A DNA stretch of 64,000 bases from Collinsella ihumii (GTDB lineage: Bacteria > Actinomycetota > Coriobacteriia > Coriobacteriales > Coriobacteriaceae): contig NZ_FCOU01000009.1 of the NCBI RefSeq assembly GCF_900046475.1, positions 186,001 through 250,000 on the forward strand, written 5' to 3'. Each line of letters starts with the position of its first letter. Position 1 is the stretch's first letter. Shown here piece after piece: positions 12,762 to 14,617 of this stretch. A program made the translations under genes and the position numbers. The notes beneath the pieces are model-generated. The model was not told the DNA's origin and made no database searches. It saw only the letters and a list, made by a program, of their open reading frames with translations.

Positions 12762-13509
12762 TCAGCCGGATCCGCTGCCGAGCTTCCTCCTCATGTTGAG
12801 CTCGCCCATCTCGACCCACGCGGTGCCGTGCACGATGCGGTCCATGATCGCGTCGGCGTGCACGCCGCCCCCGAGCCGCGCGTGCCAGTCCTTCTGCCTG
12901 AACTGGGTGCAGAGAACCGTCGAGCACGAGCCGTAGCCCGCCTCCATGAGCTCGAGCAGGAAGCCCCGGAACAGCTCGCCGGGGCGGTCGAGCAGCCACT
13001 CGTCCAGCACGAGCACCTGGAAGGCGGCGTACTTGCGGGTGAGCTTGCGCTCGCCGCCCGTTCGCTCGCGCGCCTCGCGCCACGCCTCCTCGAGGTCGGG
13101 GCAGCGTATGTAGCAGGCGCGCATCCGTCGCTGGCAGGCGGCCTTCGCGAGCGCGCAGGCCAGGTAGGTCTTCCCCGTGCCCGTCGGCCCCTGGAGCACG
13201 ACGTTCTGGCCGCGCTCGGCGAACCCGCAGGTCGAAAGCTCGGTGACGAGCAGCCGGTCGAGCCCGCGCTCCTCCGAGAAGTCTATGGAGCGCACGTCCG
13301 CCTCGGGATAGCGCAGGCCCGCGCGCTTGGTGAGGTTGCGCACCTTGGACGTCAAGAAGGACGAGGGGGTCGTCGTTCATGATCTGCTCGCCGCAGTCGG
13401 CGCAGGTCATGCCCATGCACATGCCCTCGTCCTGCGCCGCGAAGGCGTCGAGCAGGTCGGATGCGCCCATGTCGCGCAGCTTGCGCCTGGTCTCCACGGA
13501 GAGGTCCAT
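12762..13509 (-). pseudogene. istB: IstB-like transposition helper ATPase, frameshifted
   Basis: AAA+ helper of IS21 transposases. The ATG at 13507-13509 gives MDLSVETRRKLRDMG and the usual helical N-terminus. After about residue 35 the frame enters a block identical in sense to IleS (TCADCGEQIMNDD). The rest of IstB (TSKVRNLTKRAG, Walker A GPTGTGKT, LVLDEW and QFRQKDWHARLGGG to the stop) continues in the +1 frame. So the gene is broken near 13363-13376 as written. Either the copy is dead, a programmed shift is used, or the assembly is wrong here. Confidence 0.75.
13363..13407 (-). other. ileS-identical block inside istB
   Basis: 45 bp matching 2919-2963 of ileS at 43 of 45 positions, in the same strand sense and the same codon frame (TCADCG(E)IMNDD). 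istB loses its frame at the downstream edge of this block. Confidence 0.85.
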
Positions 13510-13554
13510 CTCCCTACACCTCCCCGTAGAAGTCCGCGCCCCGGACGTATCCGG

Positions 13555-13609
13555 CTCGTCCACGCGGTCGGCCGTACCCGGGGCGCAGGTGAGCGACGTG
13601 TCCTGGTTG
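13555..13609 (-). other. ftsH-identical block inside istA
   Basis: 55 bp matching 8726-8780 of ftsH at 54 of 55 positions, same strand sense and same codon frame ([13 protein letters not shown]). The istA frame changes immediately after it. Confidence 0.88.
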
Positions 13610-14577
13610 CTCCTGAGTATCGGCTCCACATCCCGGTAGCGCGGTGAGCGCCTCCCCGTCGCCAGCGCCATCTCGCACGCCCTCTCGAGCCGCGGGGCGG
13701 AGTACTTGTGCGAGAGCCTCAGCACCGCGAGCGCGGCGTTGAACCCCTGCTCCTCGAACTCCACGGACTGGAATATCCGCTCGACGACGCCGGCGCACGA
13801 CGGGCCGACCCTCTCCGCCCAGCGCCGGATTCGCCCGGCGTCCCAGTCCGAGTACGACCCCCCGTCCGGCAGGTCGGCCTCGTGCGTCGAGTACCTGTTG
13901 CGCGCGTATGCCGGGAACAGCGGGTGGGTCGCGAGCCGCTCTCCGCCCAGGAAGACCTCGACGGTGGACTCAGTGACGCGCAGGTCGACCGTCCTGCCGA
14001 CGGCGAGATGGGTCACCGAGTAGAAGTTGCGCTTGTACGACACGTGGCAGTTGCGCTGGACCTTGCGCCCGTACACCCACTCGCAGACCTCGTAGGGGAC
14101 GGCCGGCAGCGGCCTCAGGAGCGGGCGTTCCTGCTCCTCGAAGACCTGCCTCCGCGTGCCCTCCCGTTTGGAGAAGGGGCGGGAGTTGTGCTCGTCGACC
14201 TTCTTCCTGACGGCCTCCTTGAGCGCGCCGAAGTCCGTGAAGACCGTTTCGCGCAGCGCCGCTATCACCTCGGTGGCCGCCTGCCACACCTCGTTCTCCA
14301 CGCTGGGCTTGTCGCGCGGCCTCCTCACGCGCGCGGGCATCACCGCCGCCCCGTAATGGGCTGCCATCTCCCGGTATGCGTCGTTGATGACGACCTCGCC
14401 CTCGCGGGGATGGCGCTTGACGCCCGTCTTGAGGTTGTCCGGCACGATGCAGGGAGCCGCGCCGCCGAAGTAGCCGAATGCGTGCACGTGGCAGCGAAGC
14501 CATGTATCCTGCTTCATGTCGAGCGTCGGCTCGACCCACGACATGCGGCTGAAGGGCAGGCAGGCCACGAACAGGTA

Positions 14578-14617
14578 GAACTCGGAGATCTTGGACGTCG
14601 CCGCGTCGACTGCCGCC
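14578..14617 (-). other. smc-identical block inside istA
   Basis: 40 bp identical to 26712-26751 of smc, same strand sense and same frame (VDAATSKISEF). It lies just after the catalytic Asp of IstA and keeps the istA frame open. Confidence 0.88.

What the first reader, a model, noticed from the sequence alone, without database searches (positions are those of the whole stretch)
13363..14617. IS21 element carries three short near-identical blocks of neighbouring host genes
Seen: 45 bp of ileS (43/45), 55 bp of ftsH (54/55) and 40 bp of smc (40/40) lie inside istB/istA, all in sense and entered in the host gene's codon frame. Two sit exactly where istB and istA change frame. All three sources are within about 14 kb of the IS, far more local than random genome capture would give. 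Inference: local template switching or patch gene conversion using microhomology, or an error in assembly/polishing. If real, this is an unusual way for an IS to acquire host sequence.
Basis: partly seen in the sequence, partly recalled or inferred. Interest (0 to 1): 0.88.

Follow-up and report, generated by a model that had tools for sequence, protein, structure and literature searches.

The report
Mate-pair assembly artefact in repeat copies
The short pieces of neighbouring genes inside this transposon are most likely errors made when a mate-pair sequencing library was used to fill in repeated DNA, not host sequence captured by the element.

Summary
In detail: three blocks of 40-59 bp in this IS21 copy match ileS, ftsH and smc 5-12 kb away. 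Reading them as an unusual capture event is not supported. The genome has seven copies of this IS. Three are identical and unpatched, with intact istA and istB. The window copy differs from them at 56 alignment columns, all but one inside the three blocks. Other copies carry different private blocks from their own flanks. An unrelated 3.9-kb element (5 copies) and an rRNA operon (blocks inside 23S and 5S) show the same thing. All 15 located same-contig donors are in direct orientation, 4.8-12.6 kb away (median 9.6 kb). No comparable block was seen in 371 kb of single-copy DNA. [quoted passage not shown] 39 relatives contain none. One block in the 3.9-kb element contains the adapter's 11-base terminus. 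Reads from mate-pair circles very probably contaminated the consensus of long multi-copy repeats. The feature is an assembly artefact; genes called in these repeats (broken istA/istB, rRNA variants) should not be trusted. Raw reads were not available.

The parts
12653..15230 (-). IS21-family element, one of seven near-identical copies in this assembly
   Evidence: BLAST of copies: C8:23091-25674, C5:29588-32170 and C5:47802-50384 identical; C3, C12 and C6 patched; Pfam IstB_IS21, rve and Mu-transpos_C_2 on the unpatched copy
13514..15069 (-). istA (position of the 520-aa ORF of unpatched copies; shifted into the istB-overlapping frame here by block 2)
   Evidence: end mapped from the unpatched copy
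12762..13631 (-). istB (position of the 291-aa ORF of unpatched copies; broken here by blocks 1 and 2)
   Evidence: ends mapped from the unpatched copy
13362..13407 (-). block 1, copy of ileS; artefactual replacement of native istB sequence, net +1 bp
13551..13609 (-). block 2, copy of ftsH; artefactual replacement at the istA/istB overlap, net -7 bp
14578..14617 (-). block 3, copy of smc; artefactual replacement in istA, no net indel
2918..2963 (-). source of block 1 in ileS (10444 bp away)
8722..8780 (-). source of block 2 in ftsH (4829 bp away)
26712..26751 (-). source of block 3 in smc (12134 bp away)

Best explanation
The blocks are an assembly artefact. The genome was assembled with Illumina Nextera mate-pair reads whose junction adapters were not fully removed. 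In such a library a fragment of several kb is circularised, and reads at or beside the circle junction come from the other end of that fragment, on the same strand, one insert length away. In single-copy DNA such reads are outvoted. In long near-identical repeats (IS21, a 3.9-kb element, rRNA operons) mainly reads anchored by their mates fill the copy, so mis-mated or junction reads that resemble the repeat (about 70-75% over 40-55 bp) enter the consensus and replace some 25-90 bp of native sequence. Shown here: the adapters, the private patches in all three repeat families, the direct orientation and the distance distribution. Inferred: that these reads made the blocks, and the exact step and software (gap filling or consensus calling).
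For: (1) The unpatched state exists three times in the same genome; the window copy differs from it at 56 alignment columns, 55 of them inside the three blocks. IS relatives in Olsenella/Enorma genomes match the unpatched sequence better than the window copy throughout (e.g. 86.2 versus 84.2%). (2) The C12 and C6 copies carry other blocks, each from its own flank. (3) The unrelated 3.9-kb element has private blocks in all five copies, five blocks with a located local donor. (4) The C11 rRNA operon has blocks matching C8 DNA inside 23S (two) and 5S (one), and its terminator matches DNA 9.6 kb away. (5) Fifteen of 15 located same-contig donors are in direct orientation, 4829-12635 bp away, median 9584, not uniform over 0-13 kb (KS p = 0.005); 15 blocks in 53 kb of repeats against 0 in 371 kb of single-copy DNA (Fisher p = 3e-14). 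(6) The 38-base Nextera mate-pair junction adapter lies inside contigs at 28 places (10 exact) in this assembly and in none of 39 relatives; one block in the C9 copy of the 3.9-kb element contains ATAAGAGACAG, the adapter's terminus. (7) Positions where a block departs from its donor often carry the unpatched IS base, as in a column-wise consensus of mixed reads.
Against: Raw reads were not available, so the step was not seen directly. The three blocks in the window contain no adapter themselves. Donors of some blocks (C3 copy of IS21, several in the 3.9-kb element) were not found in the DNA fetched. Three rRNA blocks and two blocks of the 3.9-kb element have donors on another contig (C8 and C6), which fits only if contigs are adjacent or misjoined there.
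Confidence: 0.97

Rival explanations
1. Real local patch gene conversion or microhomology-mediated template switching, in which repeat copies are overwritten by 25-60 bp from similar sequence within about 12 kb.
For: All located same-contig donors are local, resemble the recipient before the change, and blocks are mosaic with the old sequence.
Against: Blocks occur only in long multi-copy repeats, also in 23S and 5S rRNA, and none was seen in 371 kb of single-copy DNA. Orientation is always direct, and distance peaks near 10 kb instead of falling off. Backbones of the copies are otherwise nearly identical, so blocks would have to arise much faster than point mutations. Mate-pair adapters are present in the assembly.
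Confidence: 0.02
2. Artefact of another technology (linked reads, long-read consensus or polishing).
For: Locality within about 13 kb would also fit molecules or reads of that length.
Against: The Nextera mate-pair junction adapter is present 28 times. Linked or long reads predict donors more often near than far, and both orientations; neither is seen.
Confidence: 0.01

Closest known systems
Nextera mate-pair junction-adapter contamination and paired-end contamination of mate-pair libraries (described e.g. in PMC6298255 with NxTrim)
   Same: Adapter sequence left in contigs; reads joining or confusing two loci one insert length apart; insert sizes of 2-12 kb in use
   Different: Here the visible result is not a large misjoin but 25-90 bp replacements in repeat copies; no paper describing exactly this pattern was found in the few searches made
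IS21 family (istA/istB) elements of Coriobacteriia
   Same: Unpatched copies encode IstA with rve and Mu-transpos_C_2 and IstB with IstB_IS21; relatives at 75-86% DNA identity in Olsenella, Enorma and Collinsella
   Different: Nothing unusual once the artefactual blocks are set aside

Membership tests
IS21 family insertion sequence | istA transposase with DDE/rve core | tested here: met
   PF00665 and PF22483 on the 520-aa ORF of the unpatched copy
IS21 family insertion sequence | istB helper ATPase downstream of and overlapping istA | tested here: met
   PF01695, 138 bits, on the 291-aa ORF overlapping istA
IS21 family insertion sequence | terminal repeats and target-site duplication | not tested
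   Not needed for the question
Nextera mate-pair assembly artefact | junction adapter present in the assembly | tested here: met
   28 places with at most 3 mismatches, 10 exact; reversed control 0; 39 relatives 0
Nextera mate-pair assembly artefact | confined to repeats longer than reads, of any kind | tested here: met
   IS21, 3.9-kb element and rRNA operon affected; none in 371 kb of single-copy DNA
Nextera mate-pair assembly artefact | donors about one insert length away in direct orientation | tested here: met
   15 of 15 direct, 4.8-12.6 kb, median 9.6 kb
Nextera mate-pair assembly artefact | raw reads contradict the blocks | not testable with these tools
   No reads available
Host-sequence capture or local gene conversion by an IS | a property of the IS, or also seen in single-copy neutral DNA | tested here: not met
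   Also in 23S/5S rRNA and an unrelated element; not in single-copy DNA

The most novel reading that the evidence does not exclude
A real process overwrites short stretches of repeated DNA (IS copies and rRNA operons) with similar sequence from about 10 kb away.
Probability: 0.02. Interest if true: 0.9.

Novelty: not a real feature. Interest (0 to 1): 0.06.

Why it matters
It is a cautionary case. A genome used to represent a species holds copies of repeats, including rRNA genes, with short stretches of unrelated local genes that look like gene conversion. Analyses of IS decay, pseudogenes, rRNA heterogeneity or gene conversion would be misled. A search for the 38-base junction adapter is a simple test for such assemblies.

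Tried and rejected
Considered de Bruijn path confusion: exact homology at block borders is only 2-11 bp and blocks are mosaics of donor and unpatched bases, so a column-wise consensus or loose overlap is more likely. Considered linked reads: the distance distribution does not fall with distance. Considered that in-frame sense entry was meaningful: it fails in the C6 copy and cannot apply in rRNA; where it holds, similarity-based recruitment of GC3-periodic coding DNA can give it. Several dispersed palindromes first set aside as natural repeats (C3:222319, C3:237469, C5:57692, C8:3462) turned out to be the adapter itself. Paper searches for a matching Collinsella mate-pair genome report found nothing.

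Full report
Observation. The three blocks are present as described: 13362-13407 from ileS, 13551-13609 from ftsH and 14578-14617 from smc. The source genes were confirmed by Pfam. The window is contig C9:186001-250000 of a 2.84-Mb, 35-contig assembly, probably of a Collinsella-like bacterium judging from its relatives.

Other copies. The genome holds seven copies of this IS21 element. Three (C8:23091, C5:29588, C5:47802) are identical and encode intact istA (520 aa) and istB (291 aa). The window copy differs from them at 56 alignment columns, all but one within the three blocks, so the blocks stand in place of native sequence. The C12 copy carries three other blocks, from C12:293.4, 273.6 and 295.2 kb. 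The C6 copy carries three, from C6:63.2, 65.2 and 68.9 kb. The C3 copy carries one block whose donor was not found in the 72 kb fetched around it. Each affected copy thus has private blocks, and every located donor of an IS21 block lies in that copy's own neighbourhood.

Fine structure. Recipient and donor are roughly 70-75% alike over the block before the change. Borders share 2-11 bp. Where the block departs from the donor it often carries the unpatched IS base. A consensus of mixed reads would give this; heteroduplex repair could also give it.

Control repeats. If the process were a property of the IS, other repeats should be clean. They are not. A 3.9-kb element with five copies has private blocks in every copy, five of them with located local donors 6.7-12.6 kb away. 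The rRNA operon at C11:1-5407 has two blocks inside 23S rRNA and one inside 5S rRNA that match C8:10159-10203, 10958-11003 and 16453-16480, and its terminator matches C11:9599-9622. In 371 kb of single-copy DNA no comparable local direct block was seen; the remaining hits there were adapter copies, dispersed palindromes, diverged duplicates, and one 119-bp near-tandem repeat.

Geometry. All 15 same-contig donors are in direct orientation, at 4829-12635 bp, median 9584 bp, and not uniform from 0 to 13 kb (KS p = 0.005). Template switching would be expected to favour short distances and to give both orientations. Mate-pair circles predict the pattern seen: the two ends of one fragment, same strand, one insert length apart.

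The cause. [quoted passage not shown] The identity of this sequence as that adapter is from my own knowledge; the circularisation step, 2-12 kb insert sizes and the mixture of mate-pair and paired-end reads in such libraries are described in PMC6298255. One block of the 3.9-kb element (C9:305925) contains the adapter's terminal 11 bases, which the unpatched copies lack. The adapters show that mate-pair reads were used without full trimming. That these reads made the blocks is inferred from the geometry, and which program did it is unknown.

Sense and frame. For the window copy all three sources are in sense. In the C12 copy the three donor genes are also in sense, but in the C6 copy at least two (biotin ligase, CcmE) are antisense. 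The pattern is therefore not a rule.

Verdict. The letters are really in the file, but this is very probably not a real feature of the organism.

Noticed in passing
own genome, e.g. [quoted passage not shown] the assembly needs decontamination.
   Followed up: yes
G000:C11:1-5407 (L045): rRNA operon with blocks from elsewhere inside 23S (424-468, 3121-3166) and 5S (about 87-114), and a cluster of differences in 16S; rRNA heterogeneity of this genome is not reliable.
   Followed up: partly
G000:C8:71563-79342 (L048): Two copies of the 3.9-kb element head to head with almost nothing between; one carries blocks matching C6:48.4 and 52.0 kb. Probably a false join.
   Followed up: no
window 7043-7090, 42580-42645, 46235-46310, 55230-55311: Dispersed palindromic repeats with a GGGGACGTACCT core, possibly a REP-like or mobile repeat family.
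   Followed up: no
L051, C9:295005-295123 and 295481-295599: A 119-bp direct repeat, 99% identical, 476 bp apart.
   Followed up: no
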